A stretch of DNA of 64,000 nucleotides from an uncultured Aquimarina sp. (GCA_947498935.1 CANMMM010000004.1:62001-126000), one strand, 5' to 3'. Counted from the first letter of the stretch, positions 7,455-35,675 are shown. Notes: a model not told the origin generated them from the letters alone. Made by a program: numbers and translations.

Positions 7455-7614
7455 GAAGTGATTTAAACTTTTTTGATTTCAGCGAAAAACCAAGATTTTG
7501 TGATCAAATACAGCAATTTTTTAGTTGCATAGCAGCGCTACGGAACTTAAAAATTGCAAAATTTGAGTGCAAATGATCGTTTTTATAGCAAATTGAAAAA
7601 AGCTTCAACCACTT
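7455..7614 (+). repeat. Family A long-palindrome intergenic repeat, copy A1
   Basis: gaagtgatttaaacttttttgatttcagcgaaaa...gttgcatagcagcgctacggaac...gcaaattgaaaaaagcttcaaccactt; full-length homology to copies at 16532, 18169 and 27912 (inverted). Confidence 0.9.
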
Positions 7615-7642
7615 AATTATTAAAAAAACAGAGCACATACAG

Positions 7643-9484
7643 ATGAAAGATCTATTTAAGCACCTAAAAGGAGACGTATTCGGAGGAATCACCTCAGGAA
7701 TCGTAGCACTACCACTCGCATTAGCCTTTGGAGTTTCATCGGGTTTAGGCCCTAGTGCAGGGTTGTATGGAGCGATTTTTATTAGCTTTTTTGCGGCATT
7801 ATTTGGTGGAACCAATACCCAAATATCAGGTCCCACTGCACCAATGACCGCAGTCAGTATGGTAGTGATCGCAGGAATTATAGCAGTAAATGACGGAGAT
7901 GTAGAAAAAGCCCTGCCCGCCATCCTTACCATATTTCTATTAGCAGGATTGATGCAAGTAGGATTAGGAGCTTTAGGATTAGGTCGTTATATAAAATACA
8001 TGCCTTATCCAGTAGTATCTGGATTTATGACCGCCATTGGAGTGATTATATTACTTACCCAAGTACTACCTTCTGTAGGATACTATCCAAAAGAGGACGA
8101 AACATTCGTAAGTCAATTTCAGACAGAAGCCCAAGAAGTATTACTCCATAAAATAGTAAATGATCAAGCGGCAGACGGATTAGAAGTCGCTGATTTTGCT
8201 ACCGCTACGACCCAAGCACAAGGACTTTCCACAGCAGAAATCCAAAAAGAAGCCACAACATTAGCGGGTAAAAAAGCATCTGGAGCCCTCGGTGCCATTC
8301 GTTTATTTCCTAGAGCATTACAGCAGATCAATTACTTAGAATTACTACTCGCTTTAGGGACGATACTCATCATTTATGGTTTTAAGCGTATCACTACCAA
8401 AATTCCTAGTACGCTAGTAGCCTTAGTCGTTATGACAGGCATTGCTTATGGGTTTAAATTGCAGTACAGACCCATCGAAGCTATTCCTACAGGAATTCCA
8501 ATACCCAAATGGGAAATATTTTCAGACTTTAACCTGAGTGCTATTGTCCCCTATTTTTTTACAGCCCTTACGCTTGCCCTATTAGGAGCCATCGATTCAT
8601 TGCTTACTAGTATTGTAGCAGATAACATGACCAAAACAAGACACAAACCCAATAGAGAGCTCGTAGGACAAGGGATAGGAAACAGTATTGCTGCTTTTTT
8701 CGGAGGAATTCCAGGAGCAGGTGCTACTATTAGAACCGTAGTAAATATCAATGCAGGAGGTAAAACCAAGCTATCCGGTATGATTACAGGAGTCATTCTA
8801 TTAATTATCATGTTAGGACTAGGAGGAGTAGCATCCAAAATTCCAGCAGCCGTACTCGCAGGAATATTAATTACAGTAGGAATAGGAGTGATGGATTATA
8901 AAGGACTAAAAGCCATTGCCTCCTTACCACGCGGTAGTCAATTAGGACCTATTCGATTTAACTCAGATATCCTGATTATGCTCATCGTATTGGTATTATC
9001 TACCTTCTGGAATTTAGTATATGCAGTAGGAATAGGGTTAGTGATTGCTTCTTTATTCTTCATGAAAAAAATGGGAGAGGTCACCAAAAGAAAATCTGAT
9101 GTCAAACCACTCAAAGAAGAAGCATGGAAGGATGAAAAAGGATTTCCAGAAACCTTGTTACAAACCGTATTTATCAAACACCTCAAAGGACCTTTGTTCT
9201 TTGGGTTTACAAGTGATTTTCAGGAATTAGCCGCACAGATACCCGATACAGCAACAACGGTGATTATGCGATTAGAAAGAATGCAGTATATGGATCAATC
9301 AGGATTATATGCTATGGAAGAAATGATATTAGACTTAGACAAAAAAGGAATTGATATCCTATTTGTAGGATTGACCAAACAGCCTAAGTACATGATGCAG
9401 CGTTTAGACATTATCCCAGCCTTAGTACCAGAAGCTGCGATTTTCGAAACATTCGATACATGTATGCAATCCTTAAAAAAATAA
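7643..9484 (+). CDS. SulP family inorganic anion transporter with STAS domain
   Basis: 'GDVFGGITSGIVALPLALAFGVSSGLGPSAGLYGAIFISFFAALFGGTNTQISGPTAPMT'; C-terminal STAS 'VIMRLERMQYMDQSGLYAMEEMILDL'. Confidence 0.93.
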   Translation: MKDLFKHLKGDVFGGITSGIVALPLALAFGVSSGLGPSAGLYGAIFISFFAALFGGTNTQISGPTAPMTAVSMVVIAGIIAVNDGDVEKALPAILTIFLLAGLMQVGLGALGLGRYIKYMPYPVVSGFMTAIGVIILLTQVLPSVGYYPKEDETFVSQFQTEAQEVLLHKIVNDQAADGLEVADFATATTQAQGLSTAEIQKEATTLAGKKASGALGAIRLFPRALQQINYLELLLALGTILIIYGFKRITTKIPSTLVALVVMTGIAYGFKLQYRPIEAIPTGIPIPKWEIFSDFNLSAIVPYFFTALTLALLGAIDSLLTSIVADNMTKTRHKPNRELVGQGIGNSIAAFFGGIPGAGATIRTVVNINAGGKTKLSGMITGVILLIIMLGLGGVASKIPAAVLAGILITVGIGVMDYKGLKAIASLPRGSQLGPIRFNSDILIMLIVLVLSTFWNLVYAVGIGLVIASLFFMKKMGEVTKRKSDVKPLKEEAWKDEKGFPETLLQTVFIKHLKGPLFFGFTSDFQELAAQIPDTATTVIMRLERMQYMDQSGLYAMEEMILDLDKKGIDILFVGLTKQPKYMMQRLDIIPALVPEAAIFETFDTCMQSLKK

Positions 9485-9496
9485 ATAGAAAAGGCG

Positions 9497-10009
9497 CTAT
9501 TCAGAGGTGTCAGTTGATTCGCTAGTATCTTTTTTTAGAATCTTAGGCAATAGCATAGGCGCTAGTTTTTTTATAGGCGCATAGAGCACAGAAGATGTTA
9601 GCGTATCTTGTTTGATGATACGCAATGATTTATTACCTGCATCTACAAACATAATCAATACACTAGCGATGAATGCAAATTTCAAGAAGCCAAAAGCAGC
9701 GCCTAATAATTTGTTTAGCAGACCAAGTGCTGCAAAATCTGCAATTTTAGTAAGGATTTTACCAGCTAGTGAAACCAGTATTACGACTATGATAAATGTA
9801 ATAGCAAAGGCAGTCAATCGAATCGTATTGTCATTCCAAGAAAACTGTTGCTGTAAATAATCACCTACGATATGCGAAAAATGAACTGCAAAATAAATAC
9901 CAGCCACCAAAGCGATCAAGGAAGCCAATGATACAAATAATCCTTTGCCAAACCCTCTGATCAATCCCCACAGCAGTGGAATTCCTAAAATAATGTCTAC
10001 ATAATTCAT
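9497..10009 (-). CDS. CvpA family membrane protein
   Basis: 'NYVDIILGIPLLWGLIRGFGKGLFVSLASLIALVAGIYFAVHFS' CvpA-like N-terminus with 4 TM helices. Confidence 0.88.
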   Translation of the reverse strand: MNYVDIILGIPLLWGLIRGFGKGLFVSLASLIALVAGIYFAVHFSHIVGDYLQQQFSWNDNTIRLTAFAITFIIVVILVSLAGKILTKIADFAALGLLNKLLGAAFGFLKFAFIASVLIMFVDAGNKSLRIIKQDTLTSSVLYAPIKKLAPMLLPKILKKDTSESTDTSE

Positions 10010-10168
10010 AATACATACTATTTATATGCCAAGATAACATTTTAAATAATAGCATCAGAAATCATTTCATAAGTGATGCATTTATGTGCTTTTTTGTAGG
10101 ATCATACGATACAAGTGTAGCGTCTTTGATACAATTCGTATGTTTGTATTCTTAAAAAAAATAAAGTC

Positions 10169-10525
10169 ATGGCCAGAGATGCGCAATTAAAAGAACGATG
10201 GGAAACACTAGTGCAGCGATTATCTGCTCAATTCGCAGATGGAGATGAGCTAGACTTAGACGGGATAATCTATTTAATAGGCTTACAGGAACTAGGACAA
10301 TTGCATCGAAGCTTTAAAAAAGATGAAAAAATAGATCTAATGCATATCGCGATTTGTCGATTATTAGAACCCTATGGGTATTACGAATTCGATTTTTTTG
10401 ATGAGCAGGGATGGCCACATTACAAGGTCAAAGAACAATTGCCTAATCTCAAAGCAGGAGAACAATCCGTACTGATGAAAGAAGCCATTGTCGCGTACTT
10501 TCTAGAGAATGAGTACATCCAATAA
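10169..10525 (+). CDS. Conserved hypothetical protein
   Basis: 118 aa ORF between cvpA-like and pheS; good coding composition. Confidence 0.75.
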   Translation: MARDAQLKERWETLVQRLSAQFADGDELDLDGIIYLIGLQELGQLHRSFKKDEKIDLMHIAICRLLEPYGYYEFDFFDEQGWPHYKVKEQLPNLKAGEQSVLMKEAIVAYFLENEYIQ

Positions 10526-10645
10526 TAAGATAAGATCTGTAACAGCTTGTTTGTAGAATACAGTCAGCCTCAAAAATGTCGAATTTTTAATGTTTTTTGT
10601 CGTATTATCTAGTAAATTTGCTCTCCTATTTTTAAGAACAAGCTC

Positions 10646-11665
10646 ATGATCGATAAGATTAAAGAATATATAGCAGAAGTAGAAGAGTTTTCGGCAAAAA
10701 CGAAAGAAGAAGTAGAAGCCTTTCGAATTAAGTTTTCTGGTAAAAAAGGGTTAATTAATGACTTTTTTGCAGAATTTAAAAATGTTGCCGCCGATCAGAA
10801 GCGAGAATTTGGTCAGACTGTAAATGCTTTAAAAAATGCAGCAGAACAAAAAGTAAAAGCCTTAAAAGAAGAACTAGAATCTAAGGAAGATGACAAAGGA
10901 ACTTATGGAGATCTTACCAGACCTGCATCACCCGTAGCGTTAGGAGCTAGACATCCAATATCTTTAGTCAAAAATCAAATTATCGATATCTTTTCGCGCA
11001 TAGGATTTAATGTTAGCGAAGGGCCAGAAATAGAAGACGATTGGCATAACTTTACAGCACTTAATTTGCCAGAATACCATCCTGCCAGAGATATGCAGGA
11101 TACCTTTTTTATTCAGACCAATCCAGATATTTTATTGCGTACCCATACATCATCAGTACAAGTGCGCTATATGGAAGAAAATAAACCTCCTATTCGTACC
11201 ATTTCTCCAGGGAGAGTATTTAGAAACGAAGCTATTTCAGCACGTTCACACTGTTTCTTTCATCAAGTAGAAGGGTTGTATATAGATAAAGATGTATCAT
11301 TTGCAGATTTAAAGCAAACATTGCAATATTTTACAACAGAGATGTTTGGGAAATCTAAAATCCGTCTTAGACCTTCTTATTTTCCATTTACAGAACCTAG
11401 CGCAGAAGTAGATGTATACTGGGGTTTAGAAACAGAGACAGATTATAAAATGACCAAGGGAACAGGTTGGTTAGAAATCATGGGATGCGGAATGGTAGAT
11501 CCTAACGTATTAAAAAACTGTGATATCGATCCAGAAGAATACAGTGGTTTTGCTTTCGGAATGGGAATCGATCGTATCGCACTATTATTATACGGAGTAT
11601 CAGATATTAGAATGCTTAGTGAAAATGACGTACGTTTCTTAGAGCAGTTTACAGCCTCGTTATAA
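10646..11665 (+). CDS. pheS: Phenylalanine--tRNA ligase alpha subunit
   Basis: 'ALGARHPISLVKNQIIDIFSRIGFNVSEGPEIEDDWHNFTALNLPEYHPARDMQDTFF', 'GFAFGMGIDRIALLLYGVSDIRMLSENDVRFLEQF'. Confidence 0.97.
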   Translation: MIDKIKEYIAEVEEFSAKTKEEVEAFRIKFSGKKGLINDFFAEFKNVAADQKREFGQTVNALKNAAEQKVKALKEELESKEDDKGTYGDLTRPASPVALGARHPISLVKNQIIDIFSRIGFNVSEGPEIEDDWHNFTALNLPEYHPARDMQDTFFIQTNPDILLRTHTSSVQVRYMEENKPPIRTISPGRVFRNEAISARSHCFFHQVEGLYIDKDVSFADLKQTLQYFTTEMFGKSKIRLRPSYFPFTEPSAEVDVYWGLETETDYKMTKGTGWLEIMGCGMVDPNVLKNCDIDPEEYSGFAFGMGIDRIALLLYGVSDIRMLSENDVRFLEQFTASL

Positions 11666-11679
11666 TAGACTATCCAGCT

Positions 11680-12075
11680 TTGAAAAAAGATATTGAAATA
11701 CCCGTAGTAGAAAATGTATATGTAGCAGTGGTCAAAGAACTCAATGAAGAGTTTGGTGTAGACGATTGGAACTCTTACATTATTAATGACCAAGACCATG
11801 CTATAGAAATGGTATTAGTGGTGACCAAAGGATACAATGATACCAAAAAAACATCCTTATTACGACACGGACTTGGCACCGTAGCTGCCAAGTCATTTGC
11901 TAAAATCGAATTGTTACAAGAAGCGCTTTTCGAGATGAATAATGAGTTTGCGATTACGTTCTTTGCAGATGGTAAGATGTATGATAAAAAATACGTTTTT
12001 AGGACGAATACCATCAATGAGCGCGCATTCCAGGAGATTCCAGTATTAGGAAAAAGAGGAGTGCTAGCAAAATAA
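11680..12075 (+). CDS. Conserved hypothetical protein downstream of pheS
   Basis: 131 aa ORF (TTG start) closely following pheS. Confidence 0.7.
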   Translation: MKKDIEIPVVENVYVAVVKELNEEFGVDDWNSYIINDQDHAIEMVLVVTKGYNDTKKTSLLRHGLGTVAAKSFAKIELLQEALFEMNNEFAITFFADGKMYDKKYVFRTNTINERAFQEIPVLGKRGVLAK

Positions 12076-12112
12076 AAAAAATGATTACTGCTGTTTTAAG
12101 CGTATTGATGTA

Positions 12113-12130
12113 AAGAAGTTTAAATCACTT
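12113..12130 (+). repeat. Solo right-end fragment of family A repeat
   Basis: aagaagtttaaatcactt matches the right terminus of copy A2 (aaaaagtttaaatcactt) but has no body. Confidence 0.5.
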
Positions 12131-12173
12131 AAAAAAAAAGGAATGCAATAAAATTATGTGCATTCCTTTTTTT
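12131..12173. terminator. Bidirectional intrinsic terminator between convergent 11680 CDS and trpS
   Basis: aaaaaaaaaggaatgcaataaaattatgtgcattccttttttt: 11-bp stem with A and T runs on both sides. Confidence 0.85.
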
Positions 12174-12202
12174 GTGTCGTATAAAGAGCAAAATCACTTC
12201 TA

Positions 12203-13171
12203 TTAATAGCCAATTTTTGTACGTAGGCGTGTTAATACATCATTGGCAACTGTGCTTGCTTTTTCAGCTCCAATAGCTAGTGCTTTGTCGATTTCTTCTA
12301 AGTTATTCATGTAATATTGAAAACGCTCACGCTCAGTAGCGAATTTCTCTATCAGTAACTCAAACAAAGCTTGTTTGGCATGTCCATATCCATAATTACC
12401 CCCTAAGTAGTTGGCACGCATTTCCGCAATTTGTGTTTCACTAGCCATAAGTTGGTATAGCGCAAAAACATTGCAAGTATCCGGATCTTTTGGGTCTTCT
12501 AATGGTGTGCTATCAGTTTGTACCCCCATCACTGCCTTTCGCAGTTTTTTGTCAGGTAAGAATAAGTTAATGGTATTGCCTTTGGATTTACTCATCTTAG
12601 CACCATCTGTACCAGGTACATGCATGGTTTCGGTTCTGAATTTCGCTTTGGGTAATACAAATATTTCTCCCACCTTATTATGAATACGATCTGCAACATC
12701 TCTAGTAAACTCTAAATGTTGCTCTTGATCTTTACCCACAGGTACGATTTCTGCATCGTATAATAAAATATCAGCAGCCATTAGCATTGGATATGTGAAT
12801 AAACCTGCATTCACATCTTCTAATCGATCTGCTTTGTCCTTAAATGAATGTGCTAATTTTAAGCGTTGGTACGGAAAAAAACAATTTAAGTACCATGCTA
12901 ACTCCGTTACTTGTGGAATATCACTCTGTCTGTAGAAAACTGTTTTTTCTATATCTAGTCCAAAAGCTAGCCAAGTTGCAGCAGTTGCATAGGTGTTTTC
13001 TCTTAGTGTCGTCGCATCTTTGATTTGTGTGAGTGAATGCATATCGGCAATAAAAAGAAAGGACTCGTTGGCTGGCTCATTAGCCATTTCTATAGCTGGG
13101 ATAATAGCGCCTAATAAGTTTCCTAGGTGTGGCGTACCTGTACTTTGTACACCCGTTAGAATTCTAGACAT
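12203..13171 (-). CDS. trpS: Tryptophan--tRNA ligase
   Basis: 'MSRILTGVQSTGTPHLGNLLGAIIPA', 'GAKMSKSKGNTINLF' KMSKS motif. The start is taken as the internal Met, not the upstream ORF start. Confidence 0.96.
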   Translation of the reverse strand: MSRILTGVQSTGTPHLGNLLGAIIPAIEMANEPANESFLFIADMHSLTQIKDATTLRENTYATAATWLAFGLDIEKTVFYRQSDIPQVTELAWYLNCFFPYQRLKLAHSFKDKADRLEDVNAGLFTYPMLMAADILLYDAEIVPVGKDQEQHLEFTRDVADRIHNKVGEIFVLPKAKFRTETMHVPGTDGAKMSKSKGNTINLFLPDKKLRKAVMGVQTDSTPLEDPKDPDTCNVFALYQLMASETQIAEMRANYLGGNYGYGHAKQALFELLIEKFATERERFQYYMNNLEEIDKALAIGAEKASTVANDVLTRLRTKIGY

Positions 13172-13249
13172 AGTAATCTGTGTTATTTTGTGCGGCAAAG
13201 GTACTTTTTTTGCTCAGATAGCTCAAACCAATTGTGTATTTTTACAAAG

Positions 13250-13990
13250 ATGAGACTTCTAAAATACATATTGATTTTATGCTGGCGTATTTGGTTTTAT
13301 ATAATGGTCGCCATACCGATCGTATTGATGTTTCCTATATTGCTAATACTAACGGCAAAGGAGCGCTGGTATCCTGCCTTTTTTGCAGTAGCTAGAGCTT
13401 GGGCCAAGATTGTTTTATACGGGTCGGGTTTGATTCCTAAAGTGCGTAAACAAGCAATTGTAGATACTAGAAAGAGTTACATGTTTGTAGCGAATCATAC
13501 TTCTATGGCTGATATTATGCTGATGCTGTATGCGGTAAAAAACCCCTTTGTATTTGTGGGTAAAAAAGAACTCACCAAGATTCCTGTTTTTGGATTTTTC
13601 TTTAAGCGTACTTGTATTGTAGTAGACAGAAGTAGTCAACAAAGTAGAAAAGAAGTATTTGCTAGTGCGCAAGCACGACTACAATCAGGAACAAGTATTT
13701 GTATTTTCCCAGAAGGAGGCGTGCCTGATGATGAATCTATCATTTTAGATGTATTTAAGGACGGAGCATTTCGATTGGCTATAACGCATCAAATACCCAT
13801 TGTGCCGCTTACTTTTTTAGACAATAAAAAACGAATGTCATATACTTTCTTTAGTGGTAGTCCAGGGGTTACCAGAGCTTACGTGCATAAAGAAGTGTCA
13901 ACTGACGGACTAACACTAGCAGATAAGAAAACATTAAAGGATACTGTGTATAATATCATTTATCAAAAATTACAAATGGCTACCTTTTAG
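13250..13990 (+). CDS. plsC: 1-acyl-sn-glycerol-3-phosphate acyltransferase (PlsC family)
   Basis: 'FVANHTSMADIMLM' (NHxxxxD) and 'FPEGGVPDD' motifs; start chosen at MRLLKYILILC. Confidence 0.88.
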   Translation: MRLLKYILILCWRIWFYIMVAIPIVLMFPILLILTAKERWYPAFFAVARAWAKIVLYGSGLIPKVRKQAIVDTRKSYMFVANHTSMADIMLMLYAVKNPFVFVGKKELTKIPVFGFFFKRTCIVVDRSSQQSRKEVFASAQARLQSGTSICIFPEGGVPDDESIILDVFKDGAFRLAITHQIPIVPLTFLDNKKRMSYTFFSGSPGVTRAYVHKEVSTDGLTLADKKTLKDTVYNIIYQKLQMATF

Positions 13991-14122
13991 TCAGAAAGTG
14001 ATCCATCATATAAGTGATCGTTCGTAATGCTTAGAAGTGGATTGTGTTTATAAACACAAAAGCTGCTTCTTCCCCAGAAACAGCTTTGTGATCATTGCTT
14101 TGCAGCAATCATTTTCCCCGAA

Positions 14123-16531: not shown

Positions 16532-16690
16532 GAAGTGGTTTGAACTTTTTTGATTTCAACGAACATCGTAAGATTTTATGGCCAAATGCAGTGATTTTTT
16601 TGTTGCATAGCAGTGCTACGAAACCCAAAAATTGCAAAATTTGGGTGCAAAAAATTGCTTTTTAGTCAATTGAAAAAGTTTAAATCACTT
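16532..16690 (+). repeat. Family A long-palindrome repeat, copy A2 (between recA stop and its terminator)
   Basis: gaagtggtttgaacttttttgatttcaacgaacatcg...gttgcatagcagtgctacgaaac...caattgaaaaagtttaaatcactt. Confidence 0.88.
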
Positions 16691-16698
16691 TTATTAGA

Positions 16699-17712
16699 TT
16701 ATTCAGCTACAACTTTGATAGCGTCTGTAATTTTAGTCTCTAGTTCTTCCATGAGTTCAGGGTTGTCGTTTAGTAGTTTTTTAACAGCATCACGTCCTTG
16801 CCCTAATTTAGTGTCTTCATAGCTAAACCATGAACCACTTTTCTTGATGATTTCGTAATTTACACCTATGTCAATCACCTCACCAGTTTTAGAAATACCT
16901 GTACCATACATAATATCAAATTCTGCGGTTCTGAATGGAGGGGCTACTTTGTTTTTTACGATTTTTACACGGGTTTTATTTCCTTGTACTTCGCTATTAC
17001 TATCTTTAATCTGTGTAGATCTTCTAATGTCTAAACGTACAGAAGCATAGAACTTTAATGCATTACCTCCAGTGGTTGTTTCAGGATTTCCAAACATAAC
17101 TCCAATTTTTTCTCGAAGCTGGTTGATAAAAATCACCGTACAGTTTGTTTTGCTAATCGAACTAGTCAGTTTTCTAAGTGCTTGAGACATCAATCGTGCA
17201 TGTAATCCCATTTTAGAATCTCCCATTTCTCCTTCGATTTCACTTTTTGGAGTCAATGCCGCCACAGAGTCTATCACTATAATATCGATAGCACCAGATC
17301 GGATCAAGTTATCAGTAATTTCTAAGGCTTGCTCTCCATGATCAGGTTGTGATATAATCAAGTTATCAATTTCTACACCTAATTTTTCAGCATAAAAACG
17401 ATCAAAAGCATGCTCGGCATCAATAAAAGCAGCAATACCTCCTGCTTTTTGTGCTTGCGCAATTGCATGCAGTGTAAGTGTCGTTTTACCTGAGGATTCA
17501 GGACCGAAAATTTCTACGATTCTTCCTCTAGGATAACCGCCTACACCCAATGCCAAGTCTAAACCTAATGATCCCGTAGAAATCACTTCTACTTCTTGCA
17601 CGGCATCGTCACTCATTTTCATCACCGTACCCTTGCCATAGGCCTTATCTAGCTTATCTAACGTAAGTTTTAACGCTTTTAATTTTGCTTCTTTTTCTTT
17701 ATCAGTACTCAT
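16699..17712 (-). CDS. recA: Recombinase RecA
   Basis: '[30 protein letters not shown]', '[38 protein letters not shown]'-type sequence. Confidence 0.98.
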
Positions 17713-17776: not shown

Positions 17777-17795
17777 GAAGTGGTTTAAACTTTTT
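17777..17795 (+). repeat. Solo left-end fragment of family A repeat upstream of recA
   Basis: gaagtggtttaaacttttt matches the family A terminus exactly; no body follows. Confidence 0.6.
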
Positions 17796-18046
17796 AGATC
17801 TGTTCAAAAAAGTCTGTAGTCTACAATAGCAAAGTGTTGTTATTGCTATGTGAATGTTACAATGAGAAATTATTGAGTGTAACTAGTAATTGGTAGGTAC
17901 GCAACCTTTTAGTGTGGATTGTATCTATAGTATAAAAGCAATATTGAACAGCGTAAGAGCGATGATGATGTAACAGTAGTTCTTAAAAGCGTTGGATCTC
18001 ACTGTAGTGTTATTACTATTGATGCTATGAGGAAGTGAGTGCATGA

Positions 18047-18168: not shown

Positions 18169-18328
18169 GAAGTGATTTAAATTTTTCGATTTCAGCGAAA
18201 ATCGAAAATTTTGTGACCAAATGAAGTAATTTTTTTGTTGCATAGCAGCGCTACGGAACTAAAAAATTGCAAAATTTGGGTGCAAAAGATCGTTTTTATA
18301 GCAAATTATAAAAAGTTTAAACCACTTC
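18169..18328 (+). repeat. Family A long-palindrome repeat, copy A3
   Basis: gaagtgatttaaatttttcgatttcagcgaaaatcg...gttgcatagcagcgctacggaac...agcaaattataaaaagtttaaaccacttc; ends ~25 bp before the trhO start. Confidence 0.9.
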
Positions 18329-18352: not shown

Positions 18353-19384
18353 ATGCAACTGTACAATAAACTAAGTGCAAAAGAAAGAGCGGCTTTGATT
18401 GATGAAGCAGGAACAGATCGTTTAACGCTGTCTTTCTATAAATATGCACATATAGGGAACACCGAAATCTTTAGAAACCATTTATTCATTCATTGGGATG
18501 CGTTAGACGTTTTAGGGCGTATTTATGTAGCTAGTGAAGGAATCAACGGACAACTTTCAGTACCAGCGCCCAATTTCGAGGCTTTTAAAAAACATCTAGA
18601 CAGTATTTCTTTTTTAGAAAATGTACGGTTGAACATTGCCAGAGAGCAAGATGTCAAATCATTTTTAAAACTAAAGGTCAAGGTGCGACACAAGATTGTA
18701 GCAGATGGTCTCAATGATACAAACTTTGATGTAACCAATAAAGGAAAGCATGTAGATGCAAAAGCCTTTAATGAATTGATAGAAGATCCGAACACTGTTT
18801 TGGTAGATATGCGCAACCATTACGAAAGTGAAATAGGACACTTCAAAGGAGCAGTTACACCAGATGTAGATACATTTAGAGACTCATTAGATATTATCGA
18901 GGAAGATCTAAAAGAGCATAAAGAAGATAAGAAACTAGTAATGTACTGTACAGGTGGAATTCGATGCGAAAAAGCCAGTGCCTATTATAAGCATAAAGGC
19001 TTTAAAAATGTGTTTCAGCTCGAAGGAGGAATCATAGAATATGCTAGGCAAGTAGAAGCAGAAGGATTGGAGAATAAATTTTTAGGTAAGAATTTTGTTT
19101 TTGATCACAGAAGATCCGAGCGTATCAGTAATGATGTAATTTCTAATTGTCATCAGTGTGGAAAACCATGTGATACACATGTAAATTGTAGTAACGAAGC
19201 CTGTCATTTATTGTTTATACAATGCGAAGAATGTGCCACTGCTATGGATAGTTGCTGTTCTACGGAGTGCAAAGAAATCGTAGCATTGCCGTACGAAGAA
19301 CAAAAAGCTTTGCGCAAAGGGAAAGGGAATAGTAATAAAATCTTTAAAAAAGGAAGATCCGAAGTGCTGAAATTCAAGCAGTAG
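18353..19384 (+). CDS. trhO: Rhodanese-domain tRNA uridine hydroxylase (TrhO/YceA, UPF0176 family)
   Basis: 'YVASEGINGQLSVP', rhodanese 'VMYCTGGIRCEKASAYYKHKGFKNVFQLEGGIIEYA', C-terminal Cys-rich region. Confidence 0.92.
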   Translation: MQLYNKLSAKERAALIDEAGTDRLTLSFYKYAHIGNTEIFRNHLFIHWDALDVLGRIYVASEGINGQLSVPAPNFEAFKKHLDSISFLENVRLNIAREQDVKSFLKLKVKVRHKIVADGLNDTNFDVTNKGKHVDAKAFNELIEDPNTVLVDMRNHYESEIGHFKGAVTPDVDTFRDSLDIIEEDLKEHKEDKKLVMYCTGGIRCEKASAYYKHKGFKNVFQLEGGIIEYARQVEAEGLENKFLGKNFVFDHRRSERISNDVISNCHQCGKPCDTHVNCSNEACHLLFIQCEECATAMDSCCSTECKEIVALPYEEQKALRKGKGNSNKIFKKGRSEVLKFKQ

Positions 19385-26039: not shown

Positions 26040-26084
26040 GAGTGTGTTTTATGTTTTAGAAGGTTGTTATTCCAAATAATCTTT

Positions 26085-26174
26085 TTGCGTTAGGGATAGG
26101 AACGGCATCCTTTTTTGTTTTTTTTTCAAACAAAAAAGATACAGTGGATAGCCCGACCCCTTAGGGTAACGCCC
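26085..26174 (+). repeat. Family B repeat, copy B2 (variant with A/T-rich internal hairpin)
   Basis: ttgcgttagggataggaacggcatccttttttgtttttttttcaaacaaaaaagatacagtggatagcccgaccccttagggtaacgccc. Confidence 0.85.
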
Positions 26175-27076: not shown

Positions 27077-27718
27077 ATGGCAATTCTAAGATTAGGAGAT
27101 CAAGCTCCAAATTTCAAAGCACAAACGACAGAAGGAACAATAGATTTTCATGATTGGTTAGGCGATGCATGGGGAGTGTTGTTTTCGCACCCAGCAGATT
27201 ATACCCCTGTATGTACTACTGAATTGGGTACTGTAGCAAAGTATACAGAAGAATTCTCAAAACGAAATGTAAAGGTAGCAGCACTGAGTGTAGACGGTTT
27301 GGAATCACACCACGGTTGGATAAAGGATATTAACGAAACCCAAAAGACTACGGTTAATTTTCCTATTATAGCGGATGAAGATCGCAAGGTTTCGGAACTA
27401 TACGATATGATTCATCCTAATGCCGATAGTAAGCTGACGGTACGTTCGGTATTCGTGGTTGACCCTGATAGGAAAATAAAATTAATTATTACATATCCTG
27501 CTTCTACAGGAAGAAATTTTGACGAATTGATTCGTGTGATTGATTCATTGCAGCTTACAGCCTATCATAAGGTGGCTACGCCTGCTAATTGGAATCAAGG
27601 CGATGACTGTGTAATTGTGCCTGCTGTAAAAGATGAGCAAATCGCTGCTTTATTCCCTAAAGGACATACAGAAGTAAAACCATATTTGAGACTCACGCCA
27701 CAACCGAATTTGAATTAA
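27077..27718 (+). CDS. Peroxiredoxin (1-Cys Prx6-like)
   Basis: 'LGDQAPNFKAQTTEGTIDFHDWLGDAWGVLFSHPADYTPVCTTELG'. Confidence 0.95.
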   Translation: MAILRLGDQAPNFKAQTTEGTIDFHDWLGDAWGVLFSHPADYTPVCTTELGTVAKYTEEFSKRNVKVAALSVDGLESHHGWIKDINETQKTTVNFPIIADEDRKVSELYDMIHPNADSKLTVRSVFVVDPDRKIKLIITYPASTGRNFDELIRVIDSLQLTAYHKVATPANWNQGDDCVIVPAVKDEQIAALFPKGHTEVKPYLRLTPQPNLN

Positions 27719-27730
27719 TAGTGATATGTA

Positions 27731-27820
27731 GGGCGTTTCCCTGCGGGTCAGGCTATCCGTTGCAATTCCTCGCACTCCTAAGGTCGTGCTATGGGATTTC
27801 CACTCCTATCCTTAACGCAA
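27731..27820 (-). repeat. Family B repeat, copy B3
   Basis: gggcgtttccctgcgggtcaggctatccgttgcaattcctcgcactcctaaggtcgtgctatgggatttccactcctatccttaacgcaa. Confidence 0.85.
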
Positions 27821-27911
27821 AAAAATGGATGTAGTATTAGGTAACGAAATAGCTCTAAAAATGTAAAAGTATTTTCTCTCTATAATGGATAGGTATAGAG
27901 AGAATCTTTAT

Positions 27912-28072
27912 GAAGTGGTTTAAACTTTTTTCAATTTGCTATAAAAACGATCTTTTGCACTCAAATTTTGCGGTTTTTGAGTTCCGTAGCGCTGCTATAC
28001 AACTAAAAAATCACTGTATTTGATCACAAAATCTTGGTTTTTCGCTGAAATCAAAAAAGTTTAAACCACTTC
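27912..28072 (-). repeat. Family A long-palindrome repeat, copy A4 (inverted relative to A1-A3)
   Basis: gaagtggtttaaacttttttcaatttgctataaaaacgatc...gttccgtagcgctgctatacaac...tttttcgctgaaatcaaaaaagtttaaaccacttc. Confidence 0.9.
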
Positions 28073-28113
28073 TATAAATAGTTTTAAGAAATAATGTATT
28101 AAAAAGAGGTACA

Positions 28114-28770
28114 ATGCTAGATAAAAATGGAATTGCCAAGCGTATTGCACAGGAACTAAAAGATGGGTACTATGTCAATTTAGGGATTGGTATACCTACG
28201 CTGGTAGCCAATCATGTACCAGAGGGAATTGCAGTAGAGTTTCAGAGTGAAAACGGAGTTTTGGGAATGGGGCCTTTTCCTGTAGAGGGTACAGAAGATG
28301 CGGATATTATCAATGCAGGTAAGCAGACTATTACGACCATGCCGGGAGCTTCTTTTTTTGATTCAGCCACTAGTTTTAGTATGATACGAGGGCAACACAT
28401 CGATCTTACCATTCTTGGGGCGATGCAGGTATCTGAAAGTGGCGATATTGCTAATTGGAAAATTCCAGGAAAAATGGTAAAAGGGATGGGAGGTGCTATG
28501 GATTTAGTGGCAAGCGCTCAACAGATTATCGTAGCTATGATGCATACAAATAAGGCAGGTATTTCTAAACTAATGCAAAAATGTTCGTTACCTTTGACAG
28601 GTGTGCATTGTGTAAAAAAGATAGTGACTAACCTAGCTGTGATAGATATCGTACCAGAAGGTTTTAGACTTTTAGAACGTGCCCCAGGGGTTTCTGTTCG
28701 GGAAATACAAAATGCTACAGATGGGCACTTAATTGTGGGAAAAAATACACCCGAAATGCTATTAAGTTAG
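28114..28770 (+). CDS. scoB: 3-oxoacid CoA-transferase subunit B
   Basis: 'DGYYVNLGIGIPTLVANHVPEGIAVEFQSENGVLGMGPFP', 'GAMQVSESGDIANWKIPGKMVKGMGGAMDLV'. Confidence 0.95.
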   Translation: MLDKNGIAKRIAQELKDGYYVNLGIGIPTLVANHVPEGIAVEFQSENGVLGMGPFPVEGTEDADIINAGKQTITTMPGASFFDSATSFSMIRGQHIDLTILGAMQVSESGDIANWKIPGKMVKGMGGAMDLVASAQQIIVAMMHTNKAGISKLMQKCSLPLTGVHCVKKIVTNLAVIDIVPEGFRLLERAPGVSVREIQNATDGHLIVGKNTPEMLLS

Positions 28771-29116: not shown

Positions 29117-29215
29117 ATGAAAAAGCGTATCAACCGCATCCAAAAATCAGTGAAACCTACTATCGAATTGATATCTAACTGTATGTATTTGGCCAAGAAA
29201 ATATTTCTGTTCTAA
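29117..29215 (+). CDS. Possible small ORF (32 aa, basic)
   Basis: ATG-initiated MKKRINRIQKSVKPTIELISNCMYLAKKIFLF in an otherwise gene-poor 850-bp interval. No other support. Confidence 0.2.
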   Translation: MKKRINRIQKSVKPTIELISNCMYLAKKIFLF

Positions 29216-29624
29216 TACAGTATTAAACGAAATACTATAACAATGCGTACGTACAATTATCCAGTATGCGATTGTTTGGCTATTTTATTTTCCATTTGTT
29301 TGTAGTTGCTTCGTTGATAAGTACTACAATTTAATATCGATGCTTTTTTATTAAGTAAAGAGAGCCGATACTCCTGCACTTGTGAGCATTTTCCGTTGTC
29401 ATGTAAAGATTGCTTAACAAATATATATTCTTTATAATTCTGCTTTACTGACATTATGTGTATGTTTGACTGCTATGCTGACATATGTATATCTTTCCTT
29501 TTTTTCTGCTACTTTATTGATGCTTTGGCATTATCATTGTCTATGCTTATAACCAGAAATAAAACCCTATTTTTGTCTGCAATTTCCTTTTGTAAAAGGA
29601 GGGGTGAAATCGTATATATAAGCA

Positions 29625-31454
29625 ATGAATTATTTAAAAAAGTTAGCGCACTTTATCGTGCCGTATAAAAAGTATGCAATACTAAATATTATTTGTAATG
29701 TTTTTTATGCGTTATTCAGTACACTGGCTATGGTGTCTGTAATGCCTATGATCAATGTATTATTTGGTGAGAGCGAGAAAATATGTGAGAAACCTACCTA
29801 TGATACATTTAGTTTCGACGGAATTAAGGCGTATGTAGTGGATTCTCTAAATTATTTTATCACTTCGGTATCGGAGAATGATGGCCCGCAAAAAACACTA
29901 ATGTATATGGTTATACTCATCATTAGTTTGTTTCTATTGAAGAATTTGTTTGGGTATCTGGCAGTGTTCTTTATTACCTACCTTAGAAACGGGGTGCTTA
30001 AAGATTTGAGAAATAGCATTTATGATAAATTACTAAACCTGCCTATTTCTTATTATTCCGAAAAAAGAAAAGGGGATATGATAGCTCGTATTTCTGGAGA
30101 TGTGAATGAGGTGCAGGTGTCTTTATTGTCTGTGCTAGAGTTGATCGTTAGAGAGCCTTTGACGATTATTTTTGCTATTATTACGATGTTTCTGACCAGT
30201 GTGAAGCTTACGATTTTTGTGTTTTTGTTTATACCTGTTGCGGGTTTTATTATTTCATATATCGGAAAAAAATTAAAAAAACATTCGCAAAAAGTACAGC
30301 AAGAGCAAGGAACATTTTTATCTACATTAGAGGAAACGCTCAGTGGATTGCGGGTAATTAAAGGATTTAATTCAGAGGGGCATTTTAATGAGAAGTTTCA
30401 GGAATCTACGGATCGATTTTTTGAATATTCTAATACACTCGGACATCGACAAAATTTAGCGTCTCCTACGAGTGAGTTTTTAGGGATTGTTACGATTGCG
30501 ACACTGTTATGGTATGGTGGTGTGATGGTATTGATCGATCATTCGCTTTCAGGGGGTGCGTTTATAGGATATATGGGATTGGCATATCAGATACTTACGC
30601 CAGCCAAGGCGATTAGTAAGGCGAGTTATAAGGTCAAAGCAGGAAATGCTGCTGCTGATCGTATTTTAGAGGTGCTTCAGACTGCTTCCCCATTAGCAGA
30701 TACTACTGAGGCAATGAAACTACAAGGATTCGAAAAAGAAATTACCTTTGATAAGGTTTCTTTTAAATATAAAGACGATTACGTGCTTAAGGATTTTTCG
30801 CTTACTATTCCTAAAGGAAAAACAGTGGCACTAGTAGGGCAATCAGGAAGTGGAAAGTCTACGATTGCCAACCTGATCACGCGTTTTTATGATGTAAATA
30901 AAGGAAGTGTGCAGCTTGATGGACATGAGATCAAACAAGTAACAAAACACTCTCTTAGGGCATTGATTGGTTTGGTGACTCAGGAGTCTATTTTGTTTAA
31001 TGATACGGTAAAAAGTAATGTGTTATTGGGTAAAAAAGATGCTACAGATGAAGAGGTAGTTGAGGCACTAAAAGTGGCTAACGCTTGGGAGTTTGTAAAG
31101 GAGCTACCAGATGGAATATATACAAATATTGGTGATGCTGGTGGTAAACTTTCTGGTGGGCAAAAACAGCGACTTAATATTGCGAGAGCGGTGCTTAAAA
31201 ATCCTCCAATTATGGTATTGGATGAGGCGACTTCTGCTTTGGATACAGAGAGCGAACGCGTGGTGCAGGATGCACTAGAGAAAATGATGCAGCATAGGAC
31301 TTCTATCGTAATTGCGCATCGATTGTCTACCATTCAAAATGCAGATCTGATTGTGGTGATGCAAAAAGGTCAGATTGTAGAACAAGGTACTCATGAGCAA
31401 CTGTTAGCTAAAGAGGGCATGTATAATAAATTAGTACATATGCAGGCATTGTAG
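29625..31454 (+). CDS. ABC transporter, fused permease/ATP-binding (MsbA-like)
   Basis: Walker A 'GQSGSGKSTIANLI', signature 'LSGGQKQRLNIARA', Walker B 'IMVLDEATSALD', six-TM N-terminus. Confidence 0.95.
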   Translation: MNYLKKLAHFIVPYKKYAILNIICNVFYALFSTLAMVSVMPMINVLFGESEKICEKPTYDTFSFDGIKAYVVDSLNYFITSVSENDGPQKTLMYMVILIISLFLLKNLFGYLAVFFITYLRNGVLKDLRNSIYDKLLNLPISYYSEKRKGDMIARISGDVNEVQVSLLSVLELIVREPLTIIFAIITMFLTSVKLTIFVFLFIPVAGFIISYIGKKLKKHSQKVQQEQGTFLSTLEETLSGLRVIKGFNSEGHFNEKFQESTDRFFEYSNTLGHRQNLASPTSEFLGIVTIATLLWYGGVMVLIDHSLSGGAFIGYMGLAYQILTPAKAISKASYKVKAGNAAADRILEVLQTASPLADTTEAMKLQGFEKEITFDKVSFKYKDDYVLKDFSLTIPKGKTVALVGQSGSGKSTIANLITRFYDVNKGSVQLDGHEIKQVTKHSLRALIGLVTQESILFNDTVKSNVLLGKKDATDEEVVEALKVANAWEFVKELPDGIYTNIGDAGGKLSGGQKQRLNIARAVLKNPPIMVLDEATSALDTESERVVQDALEKMMQHRTSIVIAHRLSTIQNADLIVVMQKGQIVEQGTHEQLLAKEGMYNKLVHMQAL

Positions 31455-31550
31455 ACAATGTTTTTCGTCTTGTGCTAACACTTTTCGTTATGAAGGGGGG
31501 CTGATGTTTTCTAGATGTTGGCATGGTATTATTTTAGTCAATCATGTGAA

Positions 31551-31590
31551 AAAAAAATACCCTCTCAAGTCACGACACTTAAGAGGGTAC
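31551..31590 (-). terminator. Intrinsic terminator of the first S8 protease gene
   Basis: aaaaaaataccctctcaagtcacgacacttaagagggta; T-run on the minus strand. Confidence 0.75.
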
Positions 31591-31638
31591 TAAAGGGGTT
31601 TCCTTTATAAAAGAAAACTCAAAGAATAGTGTGTTTTG

Positions 31639-34600
31639 TTATTTGATTACAAAACGCGTAGTTTGTGTACCAACTTTCAGTAGATACATACCTTTTCCTA
31701 ATTGATAGGTGTCTATGGTTTCTGTGTAGCTACCTTGTTGAATAATCTTTCCTAATACATCTAAGATTTGATACGGTTGTGCCACCTCTTGTGTTAGGTT
31801 TACCTTAAGGAGGTTTCCTGATTGTATAGGATTCGGATATACGGATAATTGATCGTTTACTGGTGGACCTTGTACTAATTCATCGGTACGTGTAGTGAAT
31901 GATGAAGTTGTGCCACATGGGCCAATGAGTTTCCATCCGCCCAGGACCTTTTCGTATAAATTTCCTTGGTAAACAACAGTGCTTCCTCTTGGGTATACCT
32001 TAGAACTACTCCAAGCGGGTACTCCTTGGCAAATATCTGTGCTAGGCTTGCTGTCGCTTAGTCGTAAGTTGTCTATAGCGATATCAGCTTTCCATGTATT
32101 GCCTGTTACTCTGTTAAAACGAAGTTTTATGCTTTGTCCAGCGTATGTACTGATGTCTAAGCTAGCAGTTAACCAGCTATTTTGTTTTGTGCCAGTTTCT
32201 CTCCATATACTCGTCCATGTGCCTCCATTATCATTACTGATTTCTAGTGCTATGCTTCCCATATTGTTGTCTCCATGCATGTGGTAGTCAAAAGAGAAGG
32301 TCGCTTTGGTAAGTCCTGATAGGTCATAACAAGGTGAATTTAGGATTGCTTGCTTGTTAGGGAATCCTACATTGCTTCCAGAAGCTTCTACGTAGATGTA
32401 ATAAGATCCTTGGTTAGCGCCAGAAGGTCCTGTGCCATTAGAAGGGGTTCCTCTGCTGCTTACTGTCCAGTCGATATCATCTGCTGTGGATTGTGTCCAT
32501 GTGCCTAGTGTGTTTTCAAACCCTTGTGCGTACGGGAATGATGCTATTCCAGATGTGCAGGTGCTGTTTCCTGCGGTTGTTACTGTTACTACATTACTGG
32601 CTCCGGATAAATTTCCTGCAGCATCTATTGCTTTAATGCTAAATTGATAGGTAGTGCTGGCGGTTAATTGATTAACAATTGCAGATGTGCCATCTAGTGA
32701 CCCTATTCTGTCTGCTCCTTGATATACGATATATTCGGTAACACCTACATTGTCTGTGGCAGCATTCCATGATAGGGATACTTGATTTTTTTCGATGTTA
32801 GAAGCGGTAAGGTTTGTTGGTGTAGTCGGTGCTTGGGTGTCTGCTCCTGTGCTGCCAATCGATACAGTATAGTCTTCTACTTCTCCGTATTGGAAAGATT
32901 CGCAACTAGAAGGAATTGCATTGTATTTCATTGATACACGCATTCTAGTGCTGCCATCGATGGCTTGATTAGGTATTGTAAATGTACCGCTTACGCTGCT
33001 ACTTCTGGTTGGTGATTGTGACCATACCAGCTCTCCTGCGTCGATGAAATCACCATCTTTATTGTAATCAATCCATACGGCATATCCTTCGTTGTATACC
33101 GAGCCTGTCCATCTTGGTGTAATGGTAATTGTGTTTTCACTTCCTTTGGTTAGTGTGGCTATAGCGCCTGTAAAGTCTGCGTATCCGTTACTACTTGCGC
33201 CAGAGGTGTTGTCTATCTCTGCTAGTTTTACGTTCTGGATATATTCGTCAGTAACGCTTTGTCCGTTAGAGGAACAGTAGCTAATTTGCTGGTCAGTAGT
33301 GGTAATGTTGGTGCTGCTGCTGAATGCAGATGCTGTACCATTACTACACAGGCTTCTTACTTGTGCTTCGTAAGCTGTGTTGGGAGATAATCCGCTAATA
33401 GAATAGGTGTTAGAAGCTGCGGCTTTTGTAGTCCATGAAGTAGCTCCAGATTGTCGGTATCTAACTTCGTAAGTAGTACCTGTTACAACATCCCAATCTA
33501 TAGTGGCGCTAGTAGCCGAGATGCTTGATGTTCTAACATTGCTAGGAGTATCAGCAGTACATACTGTAGTTGTCGGTGTAAGTCCTGTAATGATTAGTGA
33601 AAAGTTTTGACTTCCTCCGTTAAGGCTTCCTTTGTGTGTTACAGTGATAGTGTATGTTCCAGAAGCGTTACCAATATCTATCCTTTCATAAGGATCTACT
33701 TTGTTGTCTCCTTTTCCATTGCTGTTTACTCCTGTTAATCTATATGGTGTATATGTTGTTCCATTTTTGGTTACTCTGATGTCTAGGTCATTAACTAATA
33801 CAGGAGTGCTGGAGTTGGTTGCTGATGTAGCGCTACCAGGCCTGTCAGTCCATGAGATAGATGCTAGTAATGGGCTACTGCCGTCTGAAGTAACATTGAT
33901 TGTGTAGCTCTGTCCATTGGCTATGGTTAATTCATCTACGATGGATTGGTTTCCGCTATTAGAGATGGTAGTTGCGGCTGCTTTAGCATTTAATAATCCC
34001 CATCCGTGTACTGCATCTGGTCCAGAGGGGCCTATGTCGTCTGCTGTATGCAGTGCTACTCCTTTGAGTGTGGCAGCTCTCATAAAATTACCATTGATGT
34101 TATTGTAGTGCTGTTGTAACAGTAACAGTGATCCACTTACGTTTGGAGAGGCCATGGATGTGCCTGTAATGCTTGCATAGTCAGTGTCACTACCCTCGTA
34201 CGTAGAATATAGTCCTGTTCCATTACCTGTAATATCTGGTTTGATTCTGAAATCATCTGTAGGTCCTTCGCTACTAGAGCTGTTAATGGTAACTGAAATT
34301 AAATCTCCATTGGCGGCTACATTAGCATCTTGTGCATTGGCTACTACTAAATTGTTTTTAGAGGTGGAATGTCCTGTGAGTTTATCGAATTTAGAGTTTC
34401 CGCTTAATGGGGCTGCGTTGTACTCATCTCTGTTACCATCGTTTCCTGCAGCTACGACCATGAGGTAATACGGTGCATTAAACATGATTCTATCCCAAGA
34501 AGCAGATGTGGTAATGTAGGCTCCAAAATACTGATCAGGAACAAGGTCTCCTCTGAATCCGTAGGAATGATTGGAAATAAGCATTCCGTCAGCTGCCGCA

Positions 34601-35271
34601 GCGGTAGCTTCGGATACATCGTTATTCCACATATAGCATCTAGCTTTGGCTTGTGGTGCCATTCCTTTAGCAGCTGACTGTACACCAGAGGCCATAATGG
34701 TACCTGTTACGTGCGCTGCATGAAAGTTTAGTTTAACACCTCCTTCGGAATTTGCATCTCTAACAGATACTCTGTTGTTGCCACCAGGTCCATCGTATTC
34801 TTGGTGTGATGCTCTGGGGTGTCCTCCATCCCAAACATGGGCAGTCATGTTCTGTCCGTCTAGATTGAGACCGAGAGAGCCTCCAATGTTTAGGTGATTA
34901 GTTCTGGTAGAGGCTGCCGCATCTGTGTTATACGTGGTGTAATAGATGGGGCTCCCGTCTGCTGCAATAGATTGTAGTTCTGAAAAACTTCCGTCGTCTC
35001 CGTACACTTGTAAATCCCAGCCATTACTTGTAGCTACTGTCATAGCTTCTTTTTTGGATTGTGCGGCCTTTTCATTACTTATTTTTGCTAATTGTCTTAG
35101 CTTGTAGGTGTTGCTTTGTTGCTGGATTGCTTTTTGTTGGTTAGTAGTCTGTGCAGTTAGACTCGTTGAGATTGTAAAAACTGTTGCAATAACAAATAGG
35201 TAGGTTTGGGGTGTAAAACCCTTGCTCAATAGGAATACTATCCTATTGAGGAGTAAGTTGTTTTTTTTCAT
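31639..35271 (-). CDS. T9SS-secreted subtilisin-like (S8) protease with FN3 (x2), GEVED-type, MAM-like, CBM5/12-like domains and C-terminal T9SS sorting domain
   Basis: 'VWDGGHPRASHQEYDG', 'NFHAAHVTGTIMASG', 'SITGTSMASPNVSGSLLLLQQHY' catalytic motifs; 'FQYGEVEDYTV'; 'CQGVPAWSSSKVYPRGSTVVYQGNLYE'; CTD 'VYPNPIQSGNLLKVNL...GKGMYLLKVGTQTTRFVIK'. Confidence 0.92.
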   Translation of the reverse strand: MKKNNLLLNRIVFLLSKGFTPQTYLFVIATVFTISTSLTAQTTNQQKAIQQQSNTYKLRQLAKISNEKAAQSKKEAMTVATSNGWDLQVYGDDGSFSELQSIAADGSPIYYTTYNTDAAASTRTNHLNIGGSLGLNLDGQNMTAHVWDGGHPRASHQEYDGPGGNNRVSVRDANSEGGVKLNFHAAHVTGTIMASGVQSAAKGMAPQAKARCYMWNNDVSEATAAAADGMLISNHSYGFRGDLVPDQYFGAYITTSASWDRIMFNAPYYLMVVAAGNDGNRDEYNAAPLSGNSKFDKLTGHSTSKNNLVVANAQDANVAANGDLISVTINSSSSEGPTDDFRIKPDITGNGTGLYSTYEGSDTDYASITGTSMASPNVSGSLLLLQQHYNNINGNFMRAATLKGVALHTADDIGPSGPDAVHGWGLLNAKAAATTISNSGNQSIVDELTIANGQSYTINVTSDGSSPLLASISWTDRPGSATSATNSSTPVLVNDLDIRVTKNGTTYTPYRLTGVNSNGKGDNKVDPYERIDIGNASGTYTITVTHKGSLNGGSQNFSLIITGLTPTTTVCTADTPSNVRTSSISATSATIDWDVVTGTTYEVRYRQSGATSWTTKAAASNTYSISGLSPNTAYEAQVRSLCSNGTASAFSSSTNITTTDQQISYCSSNGQSVTDEYIQNVKLAEIDNTSGASSNGYADFTGAIATLTKGSENTITITPRWTGSVYNEGYAVWIDYNKDGDFIDAGELVWSQSPTRSSSVSGTFTIPNQAIDGSTRMRVSMKYNAIPSSCESFQYGEVEDYTVSIGSTGADTQAPTTPTNLTASNIEKNQVSLSWNAATDNVGVTEYIVYQGADRIGSLDGTSAIVNQLTASTTYQFSIKAIDAAGNLSGASNVVTVTTAGNSTCTSGIASFPYAQGFENTLGTWTQSTADDIDWTVSSRGTPSNGTGPSGANQGSYYIYVEASGSNVGFPNKQAILNSPCYDLSGLTKATFSFDYHMHGDNNMGSIALEISNDNGGTWTSIWRETGTKQNSWLTASLDISTYAGQSIKLRFNRVTGNTWKADIAIDNLRLSDSKPSTDICQGVPAWSSSKVYPRGSTVVYQGNLYEKVLGGWKLIGPCGTTSSFTTRTDELVQGPPVNDQLSVYPNPIQSGNLLKVNLTQEVAQPYQILDVLGKIIQQGSYTETIDTYQLGKGMYLLKVGTQTTRFVIK

Positions 35272-35575
35272 TTGTTTGAGTTTGTGTTAGAGTTTTTAGC
35301 TAGTTCGGCTAAAATACTTTTCTAAAACTCTTAAAAAAATCAAAAAAATAAAAATAAAATCGATGAAGGTGTGAAAAAAATCTTTAAAGAGTGATAATTT
35401 TAAGGTTAATTGTGCTAAAATTATTGTTTTTTTAATTTTTTTTGACTAAAAATTATTATGTAAAGGATGTGATTAAAATGATCAAAAAGCTTAATTTTTT
35501 GCAAATGTGAGTGTTAGGTGGTGTTCGGATGCTTGTGAAAAATTTGAGATAATGTATGTTGTATTCTTATAGGAG

Positions 35576-35675
35576 GAAGTGGTTTCAACTTTTTATAATT
35601 TGCTATAAAAACAATTTTTTGCGCTCATAGTTTGCAATTTTTGAGTTCTATGGCGCTGTTTTGCAACTAAAAAAT
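35576..35675 (-). repeat. Truncated family A repeat, copy A5, abutting the downstream terminator
   Basis: gaagtggtttcaactttttataatttgctataaaaacaattttttgcgctcatagtttgcaatttttgagttctatggcgctgttttgcaactaaaaaa; the distal arm is missing. Confidence 0.75.

What the first reader, a model, noticed from the sequence alone, without database searches (positions are those of the whole stretch)
7455..35675. Family A: a dispersed ~160 bp long-palindrome repeat (4 full copies, 1 truncated, 2 solo ends in 28 kb)
Seen directly: copies at 7455-7614, 16532-16690, 18169-18328 (one orientation), 27912-28072 (inverted) and a truncated one at 35576-35675. All begin GAAGTGRTTTRAAYTTTTT and end in its reverse complement. 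Each folds on itself along its whole length: arms TTTTGTGATCAAATACAGCAATTTTTTAG versus reverse complement of CTTAAAAATTGCAAAATTTGAGTGCAAAT, with apex GTTGCATAGC-AGC-GCTACGGAAC. Copies differ at many positions while the apex and termini stay conserved, so they are not recent identical copies. Every copy is intergenic. Inference: a MITE-like or REP/RAYT-like mobilised palindrome, or a structured RNA element. I do not recognise it as a named family.
Basis: partly seen in the sequence, partly recalled or inferred. Interest (0 to 1): 0.72.

Follow-up and report, generated by a model that had tools for sequence, protein, structure and literature searches.

The report
Hairpin mini-transposon of marine flavobacteria
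The repeat is a 160-base hairpin-shaped mini-transposon with no gene of its own, present in hundreds of copies, very probably moved by the enzyme of a small IS5-family jumping element that has the same ends, and its inner hairpin appears to have been kept by evolution as an RNA rather than only as DNA.

Summary
Four full ~160-bp copies and one degenerate copy lie where stated. About 450 matches are estimated genome-wide (115 in 1.21 Mb), nearly all intergenic. It is a mobile element: full copies are flanked by an exact 3-bp target duplication (36 of 58, 6 expected), and the site at 16532 is empty in congeners. Its mobiliser was found. A 928-931-bp IS5-family insertion sequence in a relative and in congeners has the same 19-bp ends and 3-bp duplications. 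Cut-off pieces of it, with these ends, sit at contig ends of the host genome. The named ISBf6 of Bacteroides has the same first 16 bp. So it is a MITE; REP/RAYT is rejected. It is conserved across many Flavobacteriia genera at fixed length (160±2) and fixed apex offset (70±1), with strong compensatory change. Outside the terminal repeats, G·U replaces Watson-Crick pairs far more often than A·C does (stem 56 versus 23, terminal repeats 13 versus 13), without a matching mutational bias, so selection probably acted on one strand's RNA fold. The same hairpin carries at least two kinds of ends, matching sister IS elements. Kind: a hairpin MITE like ERIC, NEMIS or YPAL. It had no Rfam match and I found no report of it. 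Its RNA function is inferred, not shown.

The parts
7455..7615 (+). full copy A1, between carbonic anhydrase gene (6564-7196) and sulfate permease gene (7643-9484)
   Evidence: TSD ATT/ATT (7452-7454 / 7616-7618)
16532..16691 (+). full copy A2, between the stop codon of recA (16699-17712, - strand) and its terminator; this site is empty in congeners
   Evidence: flanks AAT/TAT (imperfect duplication)
18169..18328 (+). full copy A3, 24 bp upstream of a rhodanese-domain gene (18353-19384)
   Evidence: TSD TTT/TTT
27912..28072 (-). full copy A4 (closest to family consensus), between a peroxiredoxin gene (27077-27718) and a CoA-transferase gene (28114-28770)
   Evidence: TSD ATA/ATA in the element's orientation
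35576..35694 (-). degenerate copy, left arm lost or decayed, between two subtilase genes (31639-35271 and 35783-39139)
   Evidence: (34.7 bits, aligned to 35727)
17777..17811 (+). solo left end (GAAGTGGTTTAAACTTTTT...), remnant of a deleted copy
12113..12131 (-). possible solo end TAAGTGATTTAAACTTCTT (2 mismatches)

Best explanation
Family A is a non-autonomous transposable element (a MITE). Its ~19-bp terminal inverted repeats, GAAGTGRTTTRMACTTTTT, are recognised in trans by the DDE transposase of a ~930-bp IS5-family insertion sequence of the ISBf6 kind. That enzyme would excise or copy the element and insert it at an AT-rich 3-bp site (consensus T|ANT|A), which is duplicated. Between the ends it carries a foreign ~120-bp hairpin core, which belongs to a class-wide Flavobacteriia superfamily and also occurs with other ends (GAACTCRTTTAAAC, GAACTCATCTTGAC) that match sister IS5 elements. 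The core's fold is maintained in the spreading lineages by compensatory changes and by one-strand G-U tolerance. The most likely reason is that its transcript, produced when neighbouring genes read through it, folds into a long RNA hairpin that makes insertions next to genes tolerable or advantageous (mRNA stabilisation or RNase III processing, as in NEMIS/YPAL). Shown: mobility, TSD, matching IS ends, intergenic placement, covariation, strand asymmetry. Inferred: trans-mobilisation by this transposase, transcription, and the hairpin's benefit.
For: Copy number: 115 matches in 1.21 Mb, 54 full-length at E < 1e-10, about 450 extrapolated to the genome. TSD: exactly 3 bp in 36 of 58 full copies against 6.1 expected (maximum 13 in 500 shuffles), with no excess at any other length; 48 of 67 in other genomes. 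Empty sites: no copy at the syntenic loci of 29 congeners, with a clean empty site for copy 16532. Mobiliser: three 928-929-bp IS copies in G125 with ends GAAGTGATTTAAACTTTTT / GAACTCATTTAAACTTTTT, TSD ATT in two of the three, one intact transposase. Pfam DUF4096 and DDE_Tnp_1, and NCBIfam IS5 equivalog NF033580. Congener copies, including two of 931 bp with TSD ATA. Host genome: transposase pieces at contig starts C20 and C30, next to exact family-A ends. ISBf6 has the same 16-bp TIR. MITE and IS share only the TIR. Covariation: 95.6% of cells paired, 19 pairs and 214 cells with double changes, 0 of 500 shuffles as high. Strand test: RNA fold lower on the + strand in 58 of 59 foreign copies and 52 of 58 own; others-only parsimony, stem WC->GU 56 vs WC->AC 23 (p=0.0003), TIR 13 vs 13; unpaired sites show no such bias, 69 vs 94.
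Against: No complete IS copy is assembled in the host genome, only pieces at contig ends. Copies inside the host genome decay almost symmetrically (59 vs 43, p=0.14), so single copies are not under clear RNA selection. Sense orientation relative to tandem genes is only a 2:1 bias (57 vs 29). No expression data were available. Shortened 75-76-bp derivatives without the hairpin core also carry TSDs, so the core is not obviously needed for retention. The parsimony counts depend on one tree of short sequences.
Confidence: 0.85

Rival explanations
1. Plain DNA parasite: a MITE whose palindrome only reflects transposase or DNA-level constraints, with no selected RNA.
For: TIR, TSD, IS partner, near-neutral decay of copies within the host genome (59 vs 43), and core-less 75-76-bp derivatives with TSDs.
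Against: Compensatory changes extend through the inner stem, far from the ends (columns 45-71 with 101-126). G-U is favoured over A-C on one strand only, and only outside the TIR. A DNA-level constraint would be symmetric, and unpaired sites show no matching mutation bias.
Confidence: 0.3
2. REP/RAYT-type element moved by a Y1 tyrosine transposase as single-stranded DNA; the strand asymmetry would then reflect a folded single DNA strand.
For: Strand-asymmetric folding; one intact Y1_Tnp gene in the genome.
Against: A 3-bp target duplication, which Y1/RAYT mobilisation does not make (own knowledge); no element copy near the Y1 gene; an IS5 DDE element with identical ends exists.
Confidence: 0.03
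3. A host-beneficial structured RNA or cis-regulatory element (terminator, mRNA stabiliser, RNase III site) that merely resembles a transposon.
For: Deep conservation, covariation, intergenic placement in 86 of 88 copies, and insertion between recA stop codon and terminator.
Against: TSDs, empty sites, hundreds of copies in one species against 0-18 apex hits in its congeners, and IS-matching ends show it spreads as a mobile element. There is no U-run for a terminator (sequence).
Confidence: 0.12

Closest known systems
ISBf6-like IS5-family insertion sequences (named ISBf6 of Bacteroides fragilis)
   Same: TIR GAAGTGATTTAAACTT identical over 16 bp; transposase of the G125 IS is 62% identical to ISBf6; similar size; 3-bp TSD in the flavobacterial copies
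   Different: The element encodes no protein and shares nothing with the IS beyond the ~19-bp ends
Bacterial hairpin MITEs: ERIC/IRU, NEMIS/Correia, YPAL, RUP (reviewed in PMC2229807)
   Same: 100-200 bp, intergenic, high copy number, folding along the whole length as RNA; RUP ends match IS630-Spn1 as these ends match an IS5 (PMC2229807)
   Different: Unrelated sequence and host class; 3-bp rather than TA duplication; partner is IS5-family; here the mobiliser-matched ends differ between subfamilies while the apex stays the same; one-strand G-U selection measured here
Porphyromonas gingivalis MITEs/BrickBuilt with IS5-family (ISPg) TIRs (PMC4596501)
   Same: MITEs in Bacteroidota with TIRs of IS5-family elements and no transposase remnant inside
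   Different: Different TIRs (GAGACC..., ACGTCAG...), a minisatellite interior in BrickBuilt, TSDs inconsistent in size there
MITECca01 of Cardinium (PMC9769881)
   Same: High-copy, mostly intergenic MITE in Bacteroidota kept by an intact parental IS
   Different: IS982-derived, 240 bp, unique to one strain; no cross-genus conservation

Membership tests
MITE (non-autonomous miniature transposon) | Short, no coding capacity | tested here: met
   160 +/- 2 bp in 63 of 67 foreign copies
MITE (non-autonomous miniature transposon) | Terminal inverted repeats shared with an autonomous element | tested here: met
   19-bp ends identical to IS5-family copies in G125, congeners, and host contig ends
MITE (non-autonomous miniature transposon) | Target-site duplication of the same size as the partner IS | tested here: met
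   3 bp in both
MITE (non-autonomous miniature transposon) | Empty sites in relatives | tested here: met
MITE (non-autonomous miniature transposon) | Moved in trans by the partner transposase | not testable with these tools
   needs a transposition assay
IS5 family (for the partner IS) | DDE transposase of IS5 type | tested here: met
   Pfam PF13340, PF01609; NCBIfam NF033580 above its cut-off
IS5 family (for the partner IS) | Assignment to ISL2 or IS1031 subgroup | tested here: inconclusive
   ISL2-group elements of Amoebophilus have similar size (914-916 bp, 275 aa, PMC3196728); no ISfinder comparison possible
REP/RAYT | No target-site duplication | tested here: not met
REP/RAYT | Repeat copies flanking the RAYT gene | tested here: not met
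Known Rfam RNA family | Match to a curated covariance model | tested here: not met
Structured RNA | Compensatory base changes above shuffled and slid controls | tested here: met
Structured RNA | Strand-specific G-U tolerance | tested here: met
Structured RNA | Transcription of the element | not testable with these tools
   no RNA data

The most novel reading that the evidence does not exclude
The ~120-base hairpin core is a class-wide, independently conserved RNA that acts as a passenger. It has repeatedly acquired the ends of different IS5-family elements and spreads because its folded transcript does something for itself or the host, so mobility and RNA function are separate modules.
Probability: 0.3. 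Interest if true: 0.72.

Novelty: new member of a known kind. Interest (0 to 1): 0.47.

Why it matters
It names an abundant (about 450 matches per genome estimated, about 1.2% of the sampled DNA), apparently unreported repeat family of Flavobacteriia and identifies its likely mobiliser. Many bacterial hairpin MITEs still lack an experimentally confirmed one. The contrast between symmetric evolution at the ends and one-strand G-U tolerance in the stem gives a simple sequence test of whether a bacterial MITE is selected as DNA or as RNA. That question is long open for ERIC, NEMIS and YPAL.

Tried and rejected
REP/RAYT link: the one intact Y1 gene has no family-A copy near it. A PF01609 transposase cut at the end of C1 looked promising because of a nearby GAACTCTTCTTAG, but its real ends are TAATCCTACTTTGTCATCTTA. 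PF13359 found nothing in the host genome. No inward-facing end pair 0.3-4 kb apart with a convincing TSD in 1.2 Mb of host contigs. Phages, plasmids and IMG/VR: no real copies; the 8 TIR matches in viral contigs are chance. Rfam at E <= 5: only weak chance hits to the element. Bacteroidota promoter motif TAnnTTTG: not conserved in the element. Terminator function: no U-run follows the stem. A clean empty site for copy 18169 could not be drawn because the intergenic region is rearranged there.

Full report
Observation. Copy 27912-28072 folds as RNA to -50.8 kcal/mol, z -7.0. The window is part of a 4.77-Mb, 286-contig genome, placed in Flavobacteriaceae by inference from its relatives. That genome has 148 exact apex cores TAGCAGYGCTAC against 0 for the reversed control and 263 end motifs. 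In 1.21 Mb read in full there are 115 profile matches, 54 of them full-length with E < 1e-10, so roughly 450 genome-wide.

It is mobile. Across 58 full copies the flanks repeat exactly 3 bp in 36 cases (6.1 expected, maximum 13 in 500 shuffles); lengths 1, 2 and 4-9 show no excess. The target is AT-rich, consensus T|ANT|A. The syntenic loci in 29 congeners carry no copy. The site at 16532, between the recA stop codon and its terminator, is a clean empty site in the congeners aligned there, except one whose intergenic region differs. 86 of 88 copies avoid large ORFs although about 84% of the DNA is coding.

It is old and widespread. The left end with its sub-terminal stretch hits 48 loci in named genomes of Flavivirga, Arenibacter, Kordia, Croceitalea, Maribacter, Salegentibacter, Winogradskyella, Flaviramulus and several MAGs. 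The apex occurs in 15 of 300 genomes of the family and in 26 of 55 genomes of the genus, the host included, with 0-18 hits per congener against 160 in the host. Of 67 complete elements outside the narrow host set, 63 are 160 +/- 2 bp long and 66 have the apex at offset 70 +/- 1; 48 have the 3-bp duplication (three of these loci are host copies and one locus was read on both strands). Host versus foreign identity is about 70%. Viruses, phages and plasmids lack it.

The mobiliser. In the complete relative G125, ends spaced about 928 bp led to three nearly identical insertion sequences. They have ends GAAGTGATTTAAACTTTTT and GAACTCATTTAAACTTTTT, an ATT duplication in two of three, and one intact transposase. 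That protein matches DUF4096 and DDE_Tnp_1, and the NCBIfam IS5 equivalog above its cut-off. Homologues occur in 16 of 55 congeners, with full copies flanked by the same ends and 3-bp duplications (ATA, AGT, TAC). In the host itself the gene is seen only as pieces at the starts of contigs C20 and C30. Each piece is joined to an exact family-A end, which is what a collapsed repeat would look like. The closest named element found, ISBf6 of Bacteroides fragilis, has the same first 16 bp. The MITE and the IS share only these ends. A degenerate 913-bp IS in the same relative carries the other end type, GAAGTCATCTTGACTTTTT / GAACTCATCTTGACTTTTT.

One core, several ends. A second family in the host (GAACTCATCTTGACTTTTTGTTTTT...) has the same apex, ATAGCAGCGCTACGGA, and is found by the covariance model built on the first alignment with E down to about 1e-21 (that alignment includes two foreign elements with this end type). 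Two copies are chimeras, family-A left arm and family-B right arm joined at the apex, without TSD (C1:158282, C6:166188). These are best read as recombination between inserted copies.

Selection on the fold. On 70 sequences, 95.6% of cells pair, 19 pairs and 214 cells show changes on both sides, and no shuffle or slid register comes near. The + strand folds better as RNA than the - strand in 58 of 59 foreign copies and 52 of 58 own copies. Because a DNA palindrome is symmetric, a pair broken to G-U on one strand is A-C on the other, so G-U versus A-C separates RNA from DNA selection. Using a structure chosen on Watson-Crick pairs only, and counting events on a tree: all 70 sequences 115 versus 49. 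Foreign copies alone: stem 56 versus 23 (p = 0.0003), apex 13 versus 3, terminal repeats 13 versus 13. Unpaired sites show no matching mutation bias, 69 versus 94. Within the host genome the counts are 59 versus 43 on terminal branches, so inserted copies decay nearly neutrally. The constraint therefore acts mainly on the lineages that keep spreading.

Mechanism. Shown: a 3-bp-duplicating mobile element with IS5 ends and a conserved fold. Inferred: the IS5 transposase acts in trans; the transcript of the core, made by read-through from neighbours (sense:antisense 57:29 in tandem contexts), folds and makes insertions tolerable or useful, as proposed for NEMIS (RNase III) and YPAL (mRNA stability) (PMC2229807). 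Core-less 75-76-bp derivatives with duplications warn that the core is not essential for persistence.

Comparison and novelty. By its features it is a MITE of the hairpin type. REP/RAYT fails the no-duplication test. No Rfam family matches, and the papers searched describe other MITEs in Bacteroidota (PMC4596501, PMC9769881) but not this one; the library is incomplete. It is therefore a new member of a known kind, with the RNA-level constraint and the exchangeable ends as the interesting part.

Noticed in passing
window 26082-26162, 39486-39567 and about 27742-27823 (the last below the gathering score): Flavo-1 RNAs (RF01705), one of them just upstream of copy 27912.
   Followed up: no
L162, L167, L181, L126: Short CCTGCCTGCC...GGCAGGCAGG-type palindromes have inserted into loops of the element in several genomes, apparently a separate REP-like repeat of Flavobacteriia.
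   Followed up: no
host C1:158282 and C6:166188 (loci L070/L071 region and L091): Chimeric elements joining the left arm of one family to the right arm of another exactly at the shared apex, without target duplication; likely marks of genome rearrangement.
   Followed up: partly
L259:1498-1590, L274:1415-1500, L281 (start of host C20): The IS5 partner has a short GGGTTGC...GCAACCC inverted repeat just before the transposase start codon, which might limit translation from read-through transcripts.
   Followed up: no
L273:1980-2055, L158:4485-4559: Independent 75-76-bp internal-deletion derivatives, with intact ends and target duplications, in different genomes.
   Followed up: partly
L243, L245, L248, L251 (G302) and the end of host C1: A different multi-copy insertion sequence with ends TAATCCTACTTTGTCATCTTA and a 437-aa transposase; it breaks the host assembly at C1, C5 and C6.
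   Followed up: partly
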